From an uncultured Boseongicola sp. (lineage in GTDB: Bacteria > Pseudomonadota > Alphaproteobacteria > Rhodobacterales > Rhodobacteraceae): DNA of 36,049 bases. A program made the position numbers and the translations under genes. Positions 636 to 9,085 of the stretch are shown in pieces; the stretch's first letter is position 1; the number at the start of each line of letters is the position of its first letter. The notes under the pieces were generated by a model. The model was not told where the DNA came from. It did no database searches and worked only from the letters and a program-made list of their open reading frames with translations. The stretch is from assembly GCA_905479635.1 (NCBI GenBank), contig CAJQNG010000040.1, positions 1 to 36,049 of the forward strand. The letters run 5' to 3'.

Positions 636-1745
636 TCAAACACTCCACTCAACTCGATCAGAGGCAATACACAGTCCAAAACCTGATTTTCGCGCGAGAG
701 AATAACGATCTGGATTCAGAATGCCTGATCTGCCAAAGGTCAGTGGTGACAGCGTAAGATCTTGCTTTAGCAGAATCTTACCGAAAGCGCCTTCTCGGGC
801 TAGCGGGCTCTTGCCTAGTGCGTGCCCGACAGTCATCGCCGCTCGGGTTAGCAGACTGGTTTCACCCACGTGCGCCCCAAGAATCACGCTCATACCTCGA
901 GCGTGTGCAGCTTGCGCAAGCTCAATTGAGCGTAGAAGGCCACCGCATTTAGATACGCGGACATTTGCAACCCAGCTGTCTGGCTGCCCCGAATACTGAT
1001 CAAGTTGAGAGGCATTGATGAGGCTTTCATCAAGAATAATAGCGACACCCAGTTCTTGGGATATCCTTTGCATTCCAGAGACATCACCTACGGAAAGTGG
1101 CTCCTCAATAGCCCAGACATTGCGGTCAATTGCGTTGATGTGCTCTATGCATACCTCTGGTTCTTTCCACAGATTATTCGCATCGACACGAATTGTCGCG
1201 TGTTGGGGTAACCGGGCGAGCTTTTGCTTGTCACGCTCGAGGTTGGTGTTCAGCTTGATCTTGAAATCGGACAGCCCCACAACTGAGTATGCAAATGCCA
1301 CGATGCCGGTTTTTAGAGGTGAGCTGTCACCAAGCACAGCGCTGTAGCGCATCGGGGCACGCAAAGGCGGATACCCAAGATATTCCTCGATCGACAACCC
1401 ATCACGCCGCGCAAGAAAATCCAATAGCGCCATCTCGACGGCGGCGAAAGCCGCTGGATTCTGAGATACTTGAGTTTCATGAGATTCGATCCACTCCCGA
1501 ATTGTCGATTGATCCGCGCAAGACTCAACAAGGTTGGGCCCGTACTTAGAGACAAATACCTGAGCGGTTTCTTCAGTTTCTCCGGTAACATAACTTCGCG
1601 GGCAACCTTCACCAAATCCGCTGATCCCACTTCGATCGGAAACCTCCACAATAATATTAGATGTTGCTGCACGAGAAGCAGACGCATGAGAAAATCGGAA
1701 TCGAAATTTGCTGGGAAAATGCCCCCATCTCAGGACCGGCGACAT
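636..1745 (-). CDS. Enolase-superfamily enzyme (mandelate racemase/muconate lactonizing subgroup; dipeptide epimerase or N-acylamino acid racemase-like)
   Basis: 369 aa with ordered catalytic motifs: KxK (DFKIKLN), RVDANN, AIEEPL, IILDESL, VSKCGG. Start codon overlaps the upstream GH3 stop (TGATG). Confidence 0.85.
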   Translation of the reverse strand: MSPVLRWGHFPSKFRFRFSHASASRAATSNIIVEVSDRSGISGFGEGCPRSYVTGETEETAQVFVSKYGPNLVESCADQSTIREWIESHETQVSQNPAAFAAVEMALLDFLARRDGLSIEEYLGYPPLRAPMRYSAVLGDSSPLKTGIVAFAYSVVGLSDFKIKLNTNLERDKQKLARLPQHATIRVDANNLWKEPEVCIEHINAIDRNVWAIEEPLSVGDVSGMQRISQELGVAIILDESLINASQLDQYSGQPDSWVANVRVSKCGGLLRSIELAQAAHARGMSVILGAHVGETSLLTRAAMTVGHALGKSPLAREGAFGKILLKQDLTLSPLTFGRSGILNPDRYSLARKSGFGLCIASDRVEWSV

Positions 1746-3433
1746 CAGCGTGACCCGTCAGGAGATGTTGCATCTTCCAAGACTACCCAGGGGGCAAGCT
1801 TTGCTGACCAGTCTCGCTGATAGCCTAGGATGACGGGTTTGTATTGCGCTTCTCGCACTCCTGCTGCCACGCTTTGGTCTCGCAATGCGCTCATTGTTCC
1901 CGGCTTTAGTCGTCGCCCAATCAAGGGATAAATTCGATCGCTTGCACGTTTGTCTGCGTATTCGCTGTTCACTACTTGAAGCTGCTGGTCCACGAATGCA
2001 GCAAAGGCATTTGGGTCAGCTCCACCATCAGTTTCGATCAGAAATTCATACCTTGCTGCCGTCTCGTCAGCGAGAAACATGTAACCACTGACAGAGAGCC
2101 CCAAAGAGGAGATCAACGTGGACGCAGCCGTAATTACTTGATGCTCGCTGAGCTTCTCGCCCGTAATATTTGTAACGCCGCGTCCCTTCTGCAGAAAGCT
2201 CAGGCTTGGACAGGCTCCGATGCCGGTTTTGGCGCGCAAAAGATCATTGATATTATAGCGATAGAGGCCTGACTGAGTTGTAACAAAGACATAATATTCT
2301 TTGCCGTGTACTAGCTCATGGATTCCCATGAAGTGTTGTCTGTTTTCATCCCAGTCTTCACGCAAAACGAATTCGTACACGTGCTCGGTAATCAAGGGCA
2401 TACAAATATTTGAAAGGGCATCGAAATTGAATGTGCCCATGAATTCGCTTGCGGCGTATCCGTATTCCACAACCTTCACTGAGGCGGGTAGATTGTGGCG
2501 AAGTTTTGAAAGAGCGACGCCGCAACTTCCGCCAGTCCAAGTTGCAATCGCCGCGAGTCTTGGCCACACGATTTCCGGCGACAATCGAGAGTCAGTCTCA
2601 AGCGCCTGACGCAGACTTAGCAATCTCCCAGGCTCTATTTTCTGAAAGATTTCGCCGACTACCGAAACAACGGATGGATGAAGGTTTTTGGCCGAGCGGG
2701 TTTCAAGCGCATCAAGAAGTAGTTCCTGATCAGCCTCAATAATCTCGCAGACTTTTAAAATAGAAGAAGGGTTCGCCGTTCCAATGCCGCTGATATCGGA
2801 GCGTGACAAAGCTGCTAGTGCGTAGACCTGATACTTCGCCGCGACGTCGCAAATCTCAAAGGTTTGAGCGGGAATAGCGAACTTTGCGGCGAGAAGGCGC
2901 GGGAGCGATTTATAGGCACTTCCCGAACTGGATCCGTAAGCGACACCGTTTTCCAGGCGCCCTTCGATCGGTGGGCTGGCCATTCCTAGAATTGCCCCCG
3001 AGAAGAACCCGGTGCTTTGCCATGTAGACAAAGACAATAGTCGTTGAGTTAAACGCATCTGACGCAGCCCGTTTTGGGTCACTGGTATAAACTTGCTTCT
3101 TCCAGTCGTTCCGCTGGTCTTGGCGCAATATACAGTTGGCTCGATGGTGAGAGCAGACTCACCTGATATTTGTCGTTCGATATACGGTTGCAGAGTATCA
3201 AATGTCTGCACCGGCACATTTTCACGAAACGATTTCATGTCGTGGATGGCTGCAAAGTTATGCCGTCTTCCAAAATCTGTTTCGGCATTTGCAGCGACAA
3301 TTTTCAACAATAGTTTTTCCTGCACTTTCGCAGGGTCAGCGAAGGCTTTTTCGATCGGACCGCGATACACAGACAAAATCCAATACATCCCGAGACCTAT
3401 CAGTCGGTTTGTGATCGCGCCGGAGGCAATCAT
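1745..3433 (-). CDS. GH3 auxin-responsive-promoter family protein (acyl-acid-amido synthetase-like, ANL adenylating fold)
   Basis: 562 aa; phosphate-binding motif TSGTTGRSKFIPVT, YGYAASEFMG, YRYNINDLLR, ITGEKLSEHQV typical of the GH3 family; overlaps the upstream gene by ATGA. Confidence 0.85.
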   Translation of the reverse strand: MIASGAITNRLIGLGMYWILSVYRGPIEKAFADPAKVQEKLLLKIVAANAETDFGRRHNFAAIHDMKSFRENVPVQTFDTLQPYIERQISGESALTIEPTVYCAKTSGTTGRSKFIPVTQNGLRQMRLTQRLLSLSTWQSTGFFSGAILGMASPPIEGRLENGVAYGSSSGSAYKSLPRLLAAKFAIPAQTFEICDVAAKYQVYALAALSRSDISGIGTANPSSILKVCEIIEADQELLLDALETRSAKNLHPSVVSVVGEIFQKIEPGRLLSLRQALETDSRLSPEIVWPRLAAIATWTGGSCGVALSKLRHNLPASVKVVEYGYAASEFMGTFNFDALSNICMPLITEHVYEFVLREDWDENRQHFMGIHELVHGKEYYVFVTTQSGLYRYNINDLLRAKTGIGACPSLSFLQKGRGVTNITGEKLSEHQVITAASTLISSLGLSVSGYMFLADETAARYEFLIETDGGADPNAFAAFVDQQLQVVNSEYADKRASDRIYPLIGRRLKPGTMSALRDQSVAAGVREAQYKPVILGYQRDWSAKLAPWVVLEDATSPDGSR

Positions 3434-4809
3434 TTGTCTGTCGCGTCCGTTGGCGTTGTAAACGGCGCCATGAGTTGGGCGCGAAAACTGTTGGGCCAGT
3501 TTCGATTTTCAATTCCGACGCGCCCAACTTCACGGTCCGCCGGTAGATACCGGGTTCCAAAAATCGTATCCCATATAATAAGGTTGTTGCCATAGTTCGA
3601 ATTTGCTTCTGATATCTTCGCTGAATGATGCCATCTGTGTAGCTCAGGGCCGGCAATGATATAGTTGAGCGGCCCGAGCTTAACCTCAGCGTTTGAGTGT
3701 TGATAAAAGCCATTGATGGCATAAAGGACAAAATACGTTCCGAACACTTCAGGGCTTACGCCCAGCAATAAGAAAGGCGCTGTGTCTCCAAGGAACTGTA
3801 TTGCTTTGTCAAATGGATGAAATCGACCAACATTGATCGTGTAAAGTTTGTCAGATGCGTGGTGTACCGCATGAAGACGCCAAAGTGGGCCATAGACATG
3901 AAGCGCCCGGTGTATCCAGTAGCGAAAGAACTCCGCCACCACCAACATTAGCATGATTTGAACCAGTATAGGCGCCTCGTGTGGCCAAAAGCCAGTTATC
4001 GCAACCACTTCGCTTTGGGAGACGCCCACAAGAATTGCCAAAGTCAGCGCTTTCAATGTGACCGGGACACCTATCTGAACAAAAGCAACGAAAAGCCCGT
4101 CCTGAACTACTTCCTTAAGAAGAGGGCGCCAGTCCTTGCGTGCAGGCGCAAGAGTCTCGTGCAGGATAATTCCAACCAACCCTAGAAGCGCGCTCAGATA
4201 AGATGAGAAGAGAAGTGGTGCGCCGGTGTCTCGCAGCCAGACGTACATTGTAAATCCGCTTATGATCAGGATCGGATAGGCAGCTACAGCCGCAATCTTG
4301 CGGGCCAAATGCTCCCAGAATGTGGAAGGTTCTTCGGCCGTTAGAAGCGTGCCCAATGTCAGCAGAAAAGCAGCCAATATGAAGTGAAATGCGGATGATA
4401 CCGCTCCATCAAACCACGACGATGAAGACAACTCGAGAAAGCCGACAACCATTCGCAAAAACATGACTAGTGCATAAACGAACGCTGCAATCTTGAGTGC
4501 GCGGCCAAGGCGAGGTCTCCGAGTATTTGGGCTAACCGCCCAAGTAACGGTGAGCATTGTCAAAAATATCAGTATCTGGAGGCCTAATAAAACCGGATAG
4601 GGCATGGTGTCGGTATGCCATAGATCAAAGCGCGGCAATCCGTCCAAATCGCGGTTGAGTTGCAGGTACTGCGCGATGATCCGGAGAGAAAATATGAAAC
4701 TGAGTGCTACCAGTATTGGCCGCAGAAGTTGTGAACAGTCGCCGTTTTGTGTCTCGTTCATCAAGGAAGCATCCCTTTGTTTTTGTTCGGGAACGGCACG
4801 TAGTTTCAT
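3430..4809 (-). CDS. Fatty acid hydroxylase/sterol desaturase family membrane protein with N-terminal multi-TM extension
   Basis: 459 aa; His clusters WIHRALH, HAVHHAS, QHSN...LHRWHHS; several hydrophobic segments in the first about 190 aa. Confidence 0.85.
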   Translation of the reverse strand: MKLRAVPEQKQRDASLMNETQNGDCSQLLRPILVALSFIFSLRIIAQYLQLNRDLDGLPRFDLWHTDTMPYPVLLGLQILIFLTMLTVTWAVSPNTRRPRLGRALKIAAFVYALVMFLRMVVGFLELSSSSWFDGAVSSAFHFILAAFLLTLGTLLTAEEPSTFWEHLARKIAAVAAYPILIISGFTMYVWLRDTGAPLLFSSYLSALLGLVGIILHETLAPARKDWRPLLKEVVQDGLFVAFVQIGVPVTLKALTLAILVGVSQSEVVAITGFWPHEAPILVQIMLMLVVAEFFRYWIHRALHVYGPLWRLHAVHHASDKLYTINVGRFHPFDKAIQFLGDTAPFLLLGVSPEVFGTYFVLYAINGFYQHSNAEVKLGPLNYIIAGPELHRWHHSAKISEANSNYGNNLIIWDTIFGTRYLPADREVGRVGIENRNWPNSFRAQLMAPFTTPTDATDK

Positions 4810-4887: not shown

Positions 4888-5199
4888 TCAACGAAATCTG
4901 CATTCCGCCGCCTGTCCGGCATATGCAGAGCTGCGGGTATCGTTGAAGCCGGGCAGAAGGCAGGCTGCGAAGGTGCTGAAAAGCGCGTCGCGGGTGGGCT
5001 TCATAAACTTAGTTGATGAAGCGCCGGGCAAGGGATTGTCTGCAGCGCACCCGGAAAGAGCGACTGCGGCTCCAAGCGCCGCCACGGCAAGGAAGCCTCT
5101 GAATGAGCCCCGGCGATCGGCGCAATCAAGATCAGCGGATCCATCAAGTGTATCTGAACCCGTGGTTCCGACTGGCTTTGTGGAGTAAATTACATTCAT
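4888..5199 (-). CDS. Small putative lipoprotein (103 aa)
   Basis: GGAGG RBS upstream of ATG at 5199; MNVIYSTKP...RRGSFRGFLAVAALGAAVALSGCAADNP has a signal peptide plus lipobox-like LSGC. The 3' part is of unknown identity. Confidence 0.5.
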   Translation of the reverse strand: MNVIYSTKPVGTTGSDTLDGSADLDCADRRGSFRGFLAVAALGAAVALSGCAADNPLPGASSTKFMKPTRDALFSTFAACLLPGFNDTRSSAYAGQAAECRFR

Positions 5200-5220
5200 C
5201 TCGACCTCCAGGTACTTATA

Positions 5221-5233
5221 TGAACACCGTTCA
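5221..5233. promoter_or_regulatory. Palindrome TGAACACCGTTCA, putative TetR-type operator 1
   Basis: TGAAC-N3-GTTCA, 22 bp upstream of the lipoprotein start codon. Confidence 0.5.
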
Positions 5234-5273
5234 AATAAATTGTTACGCGCGCGGCGATCGCGAGTCAACAAAT

Positions 5274-5292
5274 AAATGAACGACGTTCATTT
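5274..5292. promoter_or_regulatory. Palindrome AAATGAACG-A-CGTTCATTT, putative TetR-type operator 2
   Basis: Perfect 9-bp arms with a 1-nt centre; same TGAAC-N3-GTTCA core as operator 1. Confidence 0.55.
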
Positions 5293-5696
5293 TTGTAGCC
5301 AAGCCAACCCTATCAGGAATCGAAGAATTGAGGAGAAAGTCAGTCAAACTTCTTTACTTCAGGATATTCGCTCCGCTGCTTCACAACCAAAACGCGAATA
5401 TTGAAGCTCGTGATCACTTCCTCAGAGCCAGATACCTTCTAAGAAGGGTGGCGTGTGCGTTGGCGGCGCGGTTTAGCTTGAAGGCACCTCCGTTGGAAAG
5501 GCTGCACTCGTGGTTAAACACGGCGCCATAACACCCGCCATGAAACTGAAAATGGCCGCCGGAATTCCACGGCTGAGCCCCATTAAAAATGGGGGGATTA
5601 CCGAGTGATTGTTGATCTCGAACACATTTTAATCAGAAACTCTTGTGTCACCCAATACAATCTGGGCTGACTTCTTCCCTGCTCAGCGCCAACTGG

Positions 5697-5726
5697 CCGA
5701 GCCGCGAGGACGGCTCGGTCTCTTTT
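5697..5726 (+). terminator. Rho-independent terminator-like hairpin (plus orientation)
   Basis: CCGAGCCG-CGAGGA-CGGCTCGG followed by TCTCTTTT. Confidence 0.5.
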
Positions 5727-5736
5727 CGTGATGGAG

Positions 5737-6612
5737 CTAGGGCTTCGGCGAAACCACCTTTTTGGGCGCGTTAATCATGTCGATTGCTGTTCGAAATAGA
5801 CGTGTTTCAGGGTCTGCAAGATCAGCGATGACATCGAAGTGGTTGCGGTTGGGCACTTCAAATTCAATGACCGAGCCTCCGGCTTGGGAAACTTTGGCGG
5901 TGAAGTCCTGACTCTGGCGTTTGAACTCGGCGGTTTCGGTTTCACCCCAGACAACGACAAGAGGTACGTCGACGGGGGCCGGTAGTTGCATCGGGCTATT
6001 TAAGCGCGCCAAGGCTTTTGTCAGGGACAGCCAATCGTTCGGCTTGCAGAAGCGCAGGGGCTCCAAATCATACAGACCGCTTGCAAGAAGCGCGCCTTTG
6101 ACCGGGCTTCCTAATTCACGGGTGTCGGGCTGGAGTGCCATTGCTGCGAGATGAGCGCCCGCAGACGAGCCGCCGAGGTAGACACGAGCGGCGTCAAAGC
6201 TCAGACGTTGCGTATTTTGAGTGAGGTGCGAGACGGCGCGCCGGACTTGATCGACAATTTGGCCCAGAGACGCGGCCGGTGCCAGCGAATATTCGACAAC
6301 TGCAACACCGACACCCATCGAAACGAACGATTTCGCCATAAAGGCTGAGTCGGATCTGCCCAGAGCGCGCCAATAGCCTCCGTGGATGAAGACAAACAGC
6401 GGGCTGTTGGGCGCCTTGGCGGGAAAGAAATCTATGCGCTCGTCGTCGCCAGGGCCGTAGGCAATATCGCAGATGACCGAGAGGTTGGAATAGGCGCTAT
6501 TGCTGAGGCTGCGATAAGCGCGCATCTCGGCGTCGAAGTCGCTTACCGTGCCGCGGGCATCGTATTGTGTTTCGAGGTCGGCCATTGTCATGCAGCGATA
6601 GGGGTGTTCCAA
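5737..6612 (-). CDS. Alpha/beta hydrolase (kynurenine formamidase/esterase-like)
   Basis: 291 aa; HGGYW oxyanion motif, GGSSAGAH nucleophile elbow, C-terminal HFD. Confidence 0.8.
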   Translation of the reverse strand: MEHPYRCMTMADLETQYDARGTVSDFDAEMRAYRSLSNSAYSNLSVICDIAYGPGDDERIDFFPAKAPNSPLFVFIHGGYWRALGRSDSAFMAKSFVSMGVGVAVVEYSLAPAASLGQIVDQVRRAVSHLTQNTQRLSFDAARVYLGGSSAGAHLAAMALQPDTRELGSPVKGALLASGLYDLEPLRFCKPNDWLSLTKALARLNSPMQLPAPVDVPLVVVWGETETAEFKRQSQDFTAKVSQAGGSVIEFEVPNRNHFDVIADLADPETRLFRTAIDMINAPKKVVSPKP

Positions 6613-6615
6613 ACC

Positions 6616-7317
6616 TCAGACTCCCAAATATTTTTCAGCAAAGTTGTCTTCAGCGCGCATGGCGGCGACGTCTCCGTGCCAAGCGACCTGGCCTTTGACG
6701 AGAACGTAATTGTCATCAGCAAGGCGAGCCATATCGTCGAGGTTTTTGTCGATCACGAGGGTCGTTTGTCCTTCAGCTTTCAGTTCACTTAGGACGGACC
6801 AGATTTCCTGGCGGATAAGGGGGGCGAGGCCCTCGGTGGCTTCGTCAAGGATCAACAGTATGGGGTTGGTCATCAGAGCGCGTCCAATGGCCAGCATTTG
6901 TTGTTCGCCGCCGGACAATGAATTTCCAAGCTGGTTCACTCGATCCCTGAGGCGTGGAAAGCGCGCGAATACTTTGTCGAGATCCCATGGGCCGGGTCGG
7001 TTAGATCGGTTGGCAGCCGTCGCAACGAGGTTTTCGCGGACGCTGAGTGTTGGGAAAATCTGACGGCCTTCCGGGACAAGCGCTATCCCGGCGCGGCCGA
7101 TTTGATATGGGCGCTGTTGGGTGATGGTGTCGCCGTTGAATCGAATGGTTCCCGCTTTAGCGGGTGTCAGGCCAGTAATTGTGCGGACTGTTGTTGTCTT
7201 ACCCATGCCATTGCGACCCATGAGCATGACAAGATCGCCTTCCTTGAGTGTCAGGCTAATTCCGAAGAGAACTTGGGACGAGCCGTAGCTGGTTTCGACG
7301 TTTTCAAGGGTCAGCAT
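6616..7317 (-). CDS. Branched-chain amino acid/amide-type ABC transporter ATP-binding protein (LivF-like)
   Basis: Walker A GRNGMGKTT, signature LSGGEQQ, Walker B LLILDEATEGLAP. Confidence 0.9.
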   Translation of the reverse strand: MLTLENVETSYGSSQVLFGISLTLKEGDLVMLMGRNGMGKTTTVRTITGLTPAKAGTIRFNGDTITQQRPYQIGRAGIALVPEGRQIFPTLSVRENLVATAANRSNRPGPWDLDKVFARFPRLRDRVNQLGNSLSGGEQQMLAIGRALMTNPILLILDEATEGLAPLIRQEIWSVLSELKAEGQTTLVIDKNLDDMARLADDNYVLVKGQVAWHGDVAAMRAEDNFAEKYLGV

Positions 7318-8087
7318 CAGGCGGAGTCCTCCTGGTGGAGTTCATGCGTTCCAAGGTAGGCTTCTTGCACGTCGCGGTTGGCTCGGATCGCTTGGGGTGT
7401 GTCTGTTGCGATGATTTTGCCGTAGACGAGAACGGAAATCCTGTCTGCGAGCGAGAAGACAACGTCCATATCGTGTTCGACGAGCAGCATTGTCGTGGTG
7501 CCGCGAAGGCTAGTCAGAAGGGTCGTGAGATTGCGACTTTCCTCGACGCCCATACCCGCCATTGGTTCATCAAGGAGGAGAAGTTTCGGGTCGGCGGCGA
7601 GGGCCATTGCGATTTCAAGTTGGCGTTTCTGGCCGTGCGCCAAATTTTCGGCGCGGCTGTCAGCTTCGTCCGCAAGGCCTGTGCGTTCAAGAATGGCGTC
7701 AGCTTTGGCGCGTTCGGCCTGATCTGAGCCTGCTTTGGCGAAAACCTGGAAGACCTGGTTGTCCAGAGATTGCAAAACAAGACCCACGTTGTCGCGAACG
7801 GTGAATTCAGGAATGACCGAGGTAATCTGGAAACTGCGGACCAGTCCGGCATGGGGGCGTTTGTGGGCCGGAAGCGCCAGGAGGTCCTGTCCGTCAAACG
7901 TGATCGAGCCGCTATCGGGCGTAAGATAACCGGAGATTTGGCTGATGAGGGTGGTTTTGCCTGCTCCGTTGGGACCGATCAGAGCGTGAATTGTGCCCTC
8001 ATTGACAGTGAGAGAGACGTTCTCGGTTGCTTGCAAAGCACCGAATGACTTGGAGAGATTCTTGATGTCCAGCATAGGGCGGCTCAC
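7317..8087 (-). CDS. ABC transporter ATP-binding protein (LivG-like)
   Basis: Walker A GPNGAGKTT, AHGQKRQLEIAMALA, LLLLDEPMAGMG. Confidence 0.9.
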   Translation of the reverse strand: MSRPMLDIKNLSKSFGALQATENVSLTVNEGTIHALIGPNGAGKTTLISQISGYLTPDSGSITFDGQDLLALPAHKRPHAGLVRSFQITSVIPEFTVRDNVGLVLQSLDNQVFQVFAKAGSDQAERAKADAILERTGLADEADSRAENLAHGQKRQLEIAMALAADPKLLLLDEPMAGMGVEESRNLTTLLTSLRGTTTMLLVEHDMDVVFSLADRISVLVYGKIIATDTPQAIRANRDVQEAYLGTHELHQEDSA

Positions 8088-9085
8088 CCGTTTTTCCTGA
8101 AGATGAGACCGTAGAGACCGGTTTTAGCAAAGAGGACGATGAGGATCAGAATTGGCCCGAATACAACGCGCCAATGTTCCTTGAGAAGGTCCATACCAAG
8201 TTCGTGGAAGATGATCGGCAGAAATTCTTCGAGAAGGAGAAATACGAATGCGCCCATGACGGGGCCGATGAGCGTTCCAATACCGCCAAGGATGACGACG
8301 ATCATCAGGTCTCCGGATTTGGTCCAGTGGGTTAGTCCGGGGCTGACGAATTCGGTGTGGTTTGCCATCAACGCTCCTGCGAGGCCCGCGCCCGCGCCCG
8401 CGATAACGTAGATCAGGAGCTTTGCGCTGTAAGGGCGGATGCCGATAGATGTCATGCGGTCTTCATTTTGGCGAATCGCAGCAAGGACGCGGCCGAATTT
8501 TGATCGGACGAGACGGTGGCAGAAAGCGAAGAACGCGGCGAAGATTGCGAGGCAGAAATAGTAGAACGTGATGCGATCGTTGAGGTCGATGACCGGCAGG
8601 ACGTTGCGGCCTTCGAACATCATCATGCCATCGTCTCCGCCGTAAGCTTCGAGGGAAACGAAGAGGAAGAACAGCATTTGGCCAAAGGATAGCGTGATCA
8701 TGATGAAGTAAACGCCCTTTGTTCGTAAAGCGAGTGCCCCGATTATGAGAGCGAAAAGGGCGGAGATCACAATGGCGAGGGGCAGCACGATGAGGCCTGT
8801 GAGAGTGCCGTCGAAGCCCAAAACCGTTGTGTCTTCGAAGTTGTGGAAGGCGAGGATGCCGACGACGTATGCGCCTACGCCGAAGAAAGCGGCGTGGCCG
8901 AAGGAGACGAGGCCAGTGTAGCCAATGAGGAGGTCGAGACTGACGGCTCCGATAGCGAAGATGACGAGGCGCGTGGCAGTTGAGATGAGGTAGGACGAAT
9001 TGGCTGCGGTGAGGATCCATGGCAGAACAACGAGGAGCAGCGCCCCGAGGGCGTAGAATGCTGGGAGGTGCTTTTCGCTGAGCAT
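8084..9085 (-). CDS. Branched-chain-type ABC transporter permease (LivM-like)
   Basis: 333 aa hydrophobic; GYTGLVSFGHAAFFGVGAY; overlaps livG-like gene. Confidence 0.9.
   Translation of the reverse strand: MLSEKHLPAFYALGALLLVVLPWILTAANSSYLISTATRLVIFAIGAVSLDLLIGYTGLVSFGHAAFFGVGAYVVGILAFHNFEDTTVLGFDGTLTGLIVLPLAIVISALFALIIGALALRTKGVYFIMITLSFGQMLFFLFVSLEAYGGDDGMMMFEGRNVLPVIDLNDRITFYYFCLAIFAAFFAFCHRLVRSKFGRVLAAIRQNEDRMTSIGIRPYSAKLLIYVIAGAGAGLAGALMANHTEFVSPGLTHWTKSGDLMIVVILGGIGTLIGPVMGAFVFLLLEEFLPIIFHELGMDLLKEHWRVVFGPILILIVLFAKTGLYGLIFRKNG

What the first reader, a model, noticed from the sequence alone, without database searches (positions are those of the whole stretch)
636..4809. Translationally coupled three-gene operon: fatty-acid-hydroxylase-like membrane protein, GH3 amido synthetase and enolase-superfamily epimerase
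Seen: the genes overlap by ATGA (3430-3433) and TGATG (1743-1747), and all catalytic motifs of the enolase-superfamily enzyme and the GH3 adenylation motif are intact. Established: characterised plant GH3 proteins adenylate carboxylic acids and conjugate them to amino acids, and the MR/MLE branch of the enolase superfamily includes dipeptide epimerases and N-acylamino acid racemases. Membrane di-iron hydroxylases of this family oxidise alkyl chains or sterols. Inference: the operon may build a hydroxylated acyl-amino-acid conjugate whose amino-acid centre is then epimerised, giving an N-acyl-D-amino acid lipid or signal. I am not aware of this combination as a described pathway. It sits next to a restriction-enzyme relic and looks accessory.
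Basis: partly seen in the sequence, partly recalled or inferred. Interest (0 to 1): 0.75.

Follow-up and report, generated by a model that had tools for sequence, protein, structure and literature searches.

The report
Widespread hydroxylase–GH3–epimerase lipid cassette
Three overlapping genes (a membrane hydroxylase, a GH3 amide-forming ligase and an enolase-type epimerase) form a self-contained cassette that recurs in the same order in at least 13 bacterial phyla and probably makes an unknown amino-acid lipid whose amino acid is hydroxylated and flipped towards the D form.

Summary
Three intact minus-strand genes overlap by ATGA (3433-3430) and TGATG (1747-1743) and encode a FA_hydroxylase protein, a GH3 ligase and an MR/MLE enolase-superfamily enzyme. 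The adjacency is not strain-specific. A search seeded only on GH3 peptides returned 80 loci: 65 have hydroxylase–GH3–MLE in this order with near-zero spacing, and most of the rest are truncated, frameshifted or interrupted copies, or seven divergent GH3–MLE clusters. The full module spans 13 phyla. In 385 genomes sampled from the class, the same four genomes carry module-type GH3 and module-type MLE, side by side; 41 loci of other GH3s have neither partner. In 18 loci hydroxylase and GH3 are one fused protein, and the three proteins' divergences correlate (r 0.82-0.89). The divergent clusters pair GH3 and MLE with a type I PKS plus thioesterase, or with a haem-oxygenase-like domain fused to the MLE. 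Closest characterised relatives are OlsH (GH3 that makes N-acyl-ornithine) and OlsE (ornithine-lipid hydroxylase); both equivalog cut-offs are missed. Best reading: GH3 makes an N-acyl amino acid, the hydroxylase oxidises it, and the MLE epimerises its alpha-carbon. Chemistry, amino acid and order are inferred. I found no paper describing the trio.

The parts
3430..4809 (-). FAH: 459-aa integral-membrane non-haem di-iron hydroxylase (FA_hydroxylase; nearest curated family OlsE), first gene of the operon
   Evidence: Pfam PF04116 101 bits; NCBIfam OlsE 192 bits, cut-off 475; nine metal-binding-type histidines invariant in 69 homologues; AlphaFold model pLDDT 92
4315..4809 (-). N-terminal about 165-residue membrane domain of FAH; a separate small gene in many other loci, and present in L155 where the hydroxylase domain is absent
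   Evidence: no Pfam hit for the free-standing versions
3553..3954 (-). FA_hydroxylase catalytic domain (residues 286-419)
3430..3433 (-). ATGA overlap of FAH stop and GH3 start
   Evidence: near-zero spacing or gene fusion conserved in homologous loci
1745..3433 (-). GH3: 562-aa acyl-acid amido synthetase with N, M and C domains and all three nucleotide-binding motifs
   Evidence: Pfam PF03321 186.6 bits, PF23571, PF23572; NCBIfam OlsH 87 bits, cut-off 620; plant GH3 structures are the best PDB matches; motif residues invariant
1743..1747 (-). TGATG overlap of GH3 stop and MLE start
636..1745 (-). MLE: 369-aa enolase-superfamily enzyme (MR_MLE, lysine-lysine active site), last gene of the operon
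   Evidence: Pfam PF13378, PF02746; AlphaFold pLDDT 95, top Foldseek hits dipeptide epimerase 3jva and N-succinyl-Arg/Lys racemase 2p88; catalytic and capping-loop residues invariant

Best explanation
The three genes are one biosynthetic cassette for an amino-acid lipid. (1) GH3 adenylates a free fatty acid (or similar acyl acid) with ATP and transfers it to the amino group of an amino acid, giving an N-acyl amino acid, as OlsH does with ornithine. (2) The OlsE-like membrane di-iron enzyme, sometimes fused to GH3, hydroxylates that lipid, most likely on the amino-acid part, less likely on the acyl chain. (3) The MLE binds the free carboxylate of the N-acyl amino acid through its metal ion and uses two facing lysines (K164, K266) to remove and replace the alpha-proton, epimerising the L form towards the D form. 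Supported here: the module is real, conserved, co-evolving and partly fused, and all active sites are intact. Inferred: the substrates, the order of steps, the position of hydroxylation, epimerisation as the MLE reaction, and the biological role (membrane lipid or secreted lipo-amino acid).
For: Order, strand and near-zero spacing conserved in 65 of 80 GH3-seeded loci; none of 41 loci of other GH3s has either partner; module-type GH3 and module-type MLE occur in the same four of 385 class genomes, adjacent; 18 FAH-GH3 gene fusions needing at least 4 changes of state on the GH3 tree, one in an isolate genome, Marinobacterium profundum; distance correlations 0.82-0.89 with 0 of 2000 permutations as high; no other conserved neighbour. 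GH3 precedent: OlsH makes N-acyl-ornithine from free fatty acid, ornithine and ATP (PMC12493201). FAH nearest curated family is OlsE in all 49 members scanned; OlsE hydroxylates C4 of ornithine in ornithine lipid (title of ref. 46 in PMC11631085). MLE fold neighbours act on amide-bearing substrates; N-succinylamino acid racemases use paired lysines (PMC8142540). In divergent clusters GH3 and MLE sit behind a type I PKS and a thioesterase, i.e. a supply of free acid, while the MLE keeps H20, R25, PRxYV, E56, both lysines, the metal ligands and E318.
Against: No substrate is known for any of the three proteins. OlsH and OlsE equivalog cut-offs are missed by wide margins. The same two lysines and metal ligands occur in muconate cycloisomerases, and TIGR02534 (mucon_cyclo) scores marginally above the N-acetyl-D-Glu racemase model. 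The cassette holds no O-acyltransferase, so a finished two-chain aminolipid would need a gene elsewhere. The genome already has an OlsB-like N-acyltransferase, so ordinary ornithine lipid does not need this GH3.
Confidence: 0.45

Rival explanations
1. The MLE is a dehydratase or cyclo-isomerase: the hydroxylase oxygenates the N-acyl amino acid beside the alpha-carbon and the MLE removes the alpha-proton and eliminates water (dehydroamino acid) or closes a lactone or similar ring.
For: Enolase-superfamily dehydratase and cycloisomerase models match nearly all members weakly (cis-3-hydroxyproline dehydratase 51 of 52, mucon_cyclo 52 of 52). In L155 a haem-oxygenase-like oxidase domain is fused to the MLE, coupling oxidation to MLE chemistry. 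N-acyl dehydrotyrosines are known bacterial products (PMC12479983), attributed to other enzymes.
Against: Five PKS- or abhydrolase-type clusters with an MLE of the same active-site signature have no recognised oxygenase. All curated cut-offs for dehydratases and cycloisomerases are missed.
Confidence: 0.2
2. The hydroxylase and MLE act on the acyl acid before conjugation: the hydroxylase makes a 2-hydroxy fatty acid (as FA2H/Scs7-type members of the superfamily do), the MLE racemises its alpha-carbon as mandelate racemase does with mandelate, and GH3 then links the chosen epimer to an amino acid.
For: The FA_hydroxylase superfamily includes 2-hydroxylases (general knowledge); yeast Scs7p appears as a non-significant Foldseek hit. 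Enolase-superfamily mandelate racemase acts on 2-hydroxy acids (PMC8142540). Any order of steps fits the gene order.
Against: The MLE has the lysine-lysine active site of the MLE subgroup; its best PDB matches are dipeptide epimerases, an N-succinyl-amino-acid racemase and cycloisomerases. The hydroxylase's nearest curated family is the head-group hydroxylase OlsE. Seven GH3-MLE clusters lack the hydroxylase.
Confidence: 0.15
3. The GH3 conjugates a non-lipid acyl acid (aromatic or auxin-like, as plant GH3s do) to make or inactivate a small signal, and the MLE changes its stereochemistry.
For: Only plant GH3s have solved structures and align over full length.
Against: Fusion and co-transcription with an integral-membrane hydroxylase whose nearest curated family acts on a lipid; type I PKS and thioesterase partners in related clusters; nearest curated bacterial GH3 is OlsH.
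Confidence: 0.1
4. An ordinary OlsH/OlsE-type ornithine-lipid pathway with an incidental epimerase neighbour.
For: Both first partners have ornithine-lipid enzymes as nearest curated relatives.
Against: The MLE is as conserved as the other two, co-varies with them, and module-type MLE occurs only beside module-type GH3 in the class sample. OlsH is operonic with OlsI in planctomycetes (PMC12493201); no OlsI-type gene recurs beside the module. The genome has its own OlsB-like gene.
Confidence: 0.05

Closest known systems
OlsH/OlsI ornithine-lipid pathway of Singulisphaera acidiphila (PMC12493201)
   Same: Bacterial GH3 with the three nucleotide-binding motifs, in an operon with lipid-modifying genes; OlsH makes N-acyl-ornithine from free fatty acid, ornithine and ATP.
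   Different: Window GH3 scores 87 bits against a cut-off of 620 for OlsH; partners are a hydroxylase and an epimerase-type enzyme, not OlsG/OlsI. No epimerase is part of that described pathway.
OlsE ornithine-lipid hydroxylase
   Same: Same FA_hydroxylase superfamily, near full-length alignment to the OlsE model (4-285 of 293), all histidine boxes.
   Different: 192 bits against a cut-off of 475; extra N-terminal membrane domain; fused to GH3 in 18 loci.
MR/MLE-type epimerases of the enolase superfamily: dipeptide epimerases, N-succinyl-Arg/Lys racemase (2p88), NSAR, DgcA
   Same: Fold (TM about 0.83-0.86), KxK, metal ligands, second-side lysine, TGE motif in the capping loop.
   Different: About 22% identity; dipeptide-epimerase DxD motif not kept (A316-R317-E318); own invariant signature H20/R25/PRxYVTGE/NxRxSK/VGET/E318; curated cut-offs missed.
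NSAR, N-succinyltransferase and deacylase amino-acid racemisation pathway (from general knowledge, not looked up here)
   Same: Logic of acylate, then racemise the N-acyl amino acid.
   Different: Acylation by ATP-dependent GH3 instead of an acyl-CoA transferase; a lipid hydroxylase is present; no deacylase was found among conserved neighbours.

Membership tests
GH3 acyl-acid amido synthetases | PF03321 N-terminal domain plus GH3_M and GH3_C above gathering | tested here: met
   186.6, 56 and 53 bits against 23.6
GH3 acyl-acid amido synthetases | Three nucleotide-binding motifs | tested here: met
   TSGTTGRSK 106-114, YAASE 326-330, GLYRYNIND 389-397; key residues near-invariant in 79 members
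GH3 acyl-acid amido synthetases | ATP-dependent amide ligation | not testable with these tools
   needs biochemistry
OlsH lyso-ornithine lipid synthetase | NCBIfam NF052613 equivalog cut-off 620 bits | tested here: not met
   87 bits
OlsH lyso-ornithine lipid synthetase | Operon with OlsI (as in planctomycetes) | tested here: not met
   no OlsI-type gene among conserved neighbours of the module; alpha/beta hydrolases of the divergent clusters match OlsI at best at 24 bits against 385
OlsE ornithine lipid hydroxylase | NCBIfam NF052566 equivalog cut-off 475 bits | tested here: not met
   192 bits
FA_hydroxylase superfamily | PF04116 and the histidine boxes | tested here: met
   101 bits against 31; H300/H304, H313/H316/H317, H371, H391/H394/H395 invariant in 69
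Enolase superfamily, MLE subgroup | Capping domain plus barrel with KxK, three acidic metal ligands and a facing lysine | tested here: met
Dipeptide epimerases | DxD motif on the last barrel strand (from general knowledge: binds the substrate's alpha-ammonium) | tested here: not met
   first Asp replaced (A316), second position is Glu (E318, invariant), by the alignment to 3rit
N-acyl amino acid racemases (NSAR, DgcA) | Curated cut-off, or shown racemase activity on N-acyl amino acids | tested here: inconclusive
   DgcA model 86 bits against 400; activity not testable here
Muconate cycloisomerases | TIGR02534 cut-off 335 bits | tested here: not met
   88 bits

The most novel reading that the evidence does not exclude
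The cassette is a previously undescribed GH3-dependent aminolipid pathway, spread over at least 13 phyla, that makes a hydroxylated N-acyl amino acid whose alpha-carbon is epimerised to D by a dedicated enolase-superfamily lipid epimerase. It would be a class of D-amino-acid lipids, with variant clusters that swap the oxygenase or draw their acyl chain from a polyketide synthase.
Probability: 0.35. Interest if true: 0.82.

Novelty: new variant of a known kind. Interest (0 to 1): 0.64.

Why it matters
GH3-dependent aminolipid synthesis was shown in bacteria only in 2025 (PMC12493201), and its authors say other bacterial GH3s probably make other N-acyl amino acids. This cassette names a coherent subset of them with two dedicated partners and no other conserved neighbour, so their product can be sought directly. 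If the MLE epimerises the conjugate, it would add stereochemical inversion to the known tailoring of aminolipids (hydroxylation, methylation, taurine transfer). Carriers include Candidatus Nitrospira defluvii, many uncultured marine and freshwater lineages and a cultured Marinobacterium.

Tried and rejected
A single-protein search of GH3 found no relatives in genome contigs; the two-sequence alignment A1 succeeded. Broad Pfam GH3 and protein searches in relatives and the order gave mostly unrelated GH3s; these served as controls. Plasmid origin: no MLE relative and only distant GH3s on plasmids. Foldseek on the hydroxylase model gave nothing significant in the PDB, and no solved structure matches by sequence. 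Stieleriacine/thalassotalic acid clusters use other enzymes. A tRNA remnant at the window's locus was sought and not found. Alpha/beta hydrolases of the divergent clusters as OlsI: at most weak matches. Literature searches for the trio found none.
Full report
OBSERVATION. The window holds three intact minus-strand genes: 3430-4809 (459 aa), 1745-3433 (562 aa) and 636-1745 (369 aa), overlapping as ATGA (3433-3430) and TGATG (1747-1743). Pfam names them FA_hydroxylase, GH3 (all three domains) and MR_MLE. NCBIfam's nearest curated families are OlsE for the hydroxylase (192 bits, cut-off 475), OlsH for the GH3 (87 bits, cut-off 620), and mucon_cyclo (88) and the N-acetyl-D-Glu racemase DgcA (86) for the MLE, all well below cut-off. 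I call them FAH, GH3 and MLE.

CONSERVATION. A first class-level hit (L046) already had a GH3 overlapping an MLE. An alignment of the two GH3s, reduced by the tool to two GH3 peptides, was used to scan one genome per species for 84,980 species and returned 80 loci. Nothing in that seed concerns FAH or MLE. By tblastn, 65 of the 80 have FAH immediately upstream (or fused) and MLE immediately downstream on the same strand, with estimated gaps mostly between -30 and +15 bases. The other 15: L092, L108 and L147 have all or two of the genes in place but broken frames (L147 also starts at a contig edge); L088 has the MLE 1.6 kb on; L122, L142 and L149 end before an MLE; L140 has only an MLE fragment at its contig end; and seven (L145, L150-L153, L155, L156) are divergent clusters. 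The core set spans 14 phyla on the GH3 tree, 13 with the full trio, many from metagenome bins but including a complete Candidatus Nitrospira defluvii chromosome (L135) and the isolate Marinobacterium profundum (L144). No other gene recurs across the loci.

CONTROLS. Of 41 loci carrying other GH3 proteins, none has FAH or MLE nearby, though most of these loci carry only about 1.5 kb of flank. In 385 genomes sampled from the class, module-type GH3 (the next best hits drop from 493 to 62 bits) occurs in four genomes, and module-type MLE (E<=1e-50) in exactly the same four, adjacent. Pairwise distances in 62 complete loci correlate at r=0.894 (FAH-GH3), 0.833 (GH3-MLE) and 0.816 (FAH-MLE), with 0 of 2000 permutations as high. 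Shared organismal descent contributes to these correlations, so they show common history, not contact. In 18 loci FAH and GH3 form one uninterrupted open frame, verified by Pfam for L110; on the quick GH3 tree this needs at least four changes of state. Fusion is strong evidence that these two act in one process.

ACTIVE SITES. Across 71 core MLEs, K162, K164, R186, D188, N190, E214, E215, D239, R263, E295 and E318 are invariant and K266 is lysine in 70. The capping-loop set H20, R25, P49-R50, Y52-V53, E56 is invariant or nearly so. Most of this signature persists in the seven divergent clusters at about 30% identity. The GH3 motif residues and nine hydroxylase histidines are likewise invariant or nearly so. 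The MLE model (pLDDT 95) is closest to dipeptide epimerase 3jva, N-succinyl-Arg/Lys racemase 2p88 and chloromuconate cycloisomerases. The DxD motif of dipeptide epimerases is not kept: the first Asp is replaced and the second is an invariant Glu. From general knowledge DxD holds the free alpha-ammonium of a dipeptide, so its loss fits an acylated nitrogen; this is inference.

VARIANT ARCHITECTURES. L152, L153 and L156 have a type I PKS, a thioesterase (both verified by Pfam in L153, homologous ORFs in the other two), GH3, an alpha/beta hydrolase and MLE; L145 and L150 have GH3, alpha/beta hydrolase and MLE. L155 has an acyl-ACP synthetase/acyltransferase, an MLE fused to a haem-oxygenase-like domain (PF14518), GH3, the free-standing membrane domain otherwise found at the FAH N terminus, and a BioB-like radical SAM protein. 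Thus the GH3-MLE pair is the constant core; the oxygenase and the acyl supply vary.

MECHANISM. OlsH, a bacterial GH3, makes N-acyl-ornithine from free fatty acid, ornithine and ATP, and its authors expect other bacterial GH3s to use other amino acids (PMC12493201). OlsE hydroxylates C4 of ornithine in ornithine lipid (title of reference 46 cited in PMC11631085). N-succinylamino acid racemases and relatives use paired lysines, on substrates with an amide beside the alpha-carbon (PMC8142540). The simplest joint reading is N-acylation by GH3, hydroxylation by FAH, alpha-epimerisation by MLE. My estimates: conserved functional module 0.97; GH3 makes an N-acyl amino acid 0.75; FAH oxidises that lipid or its precursor 0.65; MLE reaction is epimerisation 0.6; all together about 0.45 (the steps are not independent). 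The main rivals are an MLE that eliminates water or cyclises, and action of FAH and MLE on the acyl acid before conjugation.

GENOME CONTEXT. The genome carries one GH3, an OlsB-like N-acyltransferase (144 bits to the OlsB model, cut-off 350) and a second, distant FA_hydroxylase, so the cassette is probably additional to a canonical aminolipid route. Four sampled congeners have no GH3. Two of them keep the neighbouring ABC-transporter and alpha/beta-hydrolase block (window 5812-8938, 77% identity) but not the operon. In one (G003, L174) an intact tRNA-Thr follows that block; in another (G004, L173) a stretch matching the edge of that tRNA lies beside an integrase-like ORF (judged by eye, not by Pfam). 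The window itself has no tRNA there. With the lower G+C (48-51% against about 55-57%) this points to acquisition at a variable locus.

NOVELTY. I found no paper joining GH3, FA_hydroxylase and MLE, but only open-licence papers are searchable. GH3-dependent aminolipid synthesis is known, so I rate this a new variant of a known kind; an epimerase step would be the new element.

Noticed in passing
window 5271-5812; L173 1493-2864; L174 3035-3164: Genus-variable locus: a congener (G003) has an intact tRNA-Thr beyond the alpha/beta-hydrolase gene, another (G004) has an integrase-like ORF and a matching tRNA edge, and the window has the GH3 operon side with no tRNA.
   Followed up: partly
L155 5790-7688: Single ORF fusing a haem-oxygenase-like domain (PF14518) to an MLE enolase-superfamily domain, next to GH3 and a BioB-like radical SAM gene.
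   Followed up: partly
L152, L153, L156: Type I PKS (KS-AT-DH-KR-ACP in L153), thioesterase, GH3, alpha/beta hydrolase and MLE clusters in Pseudoalteromonas, Rheinheimera and an Exilibacterium bin; possibly an undescribed lipo-amino-acid or polyketide-amide product.
   Followed up: partly
window 4315-4809; L110 6560-7027; L140; L155 9344-9832: About 150-residue membrane domain without a Pfam family, with conserved Q78, R119 and H142, either fused to the hydroxylase or a separate gene, and once present without the hydroxylase.
   Followed up: partly
   Followed up: partly
window 4888-5271 -: 127-aa ORF upstream of the operon containing a lipoprotein-like VALSGCAA motif; no family match.
   Followed up: no
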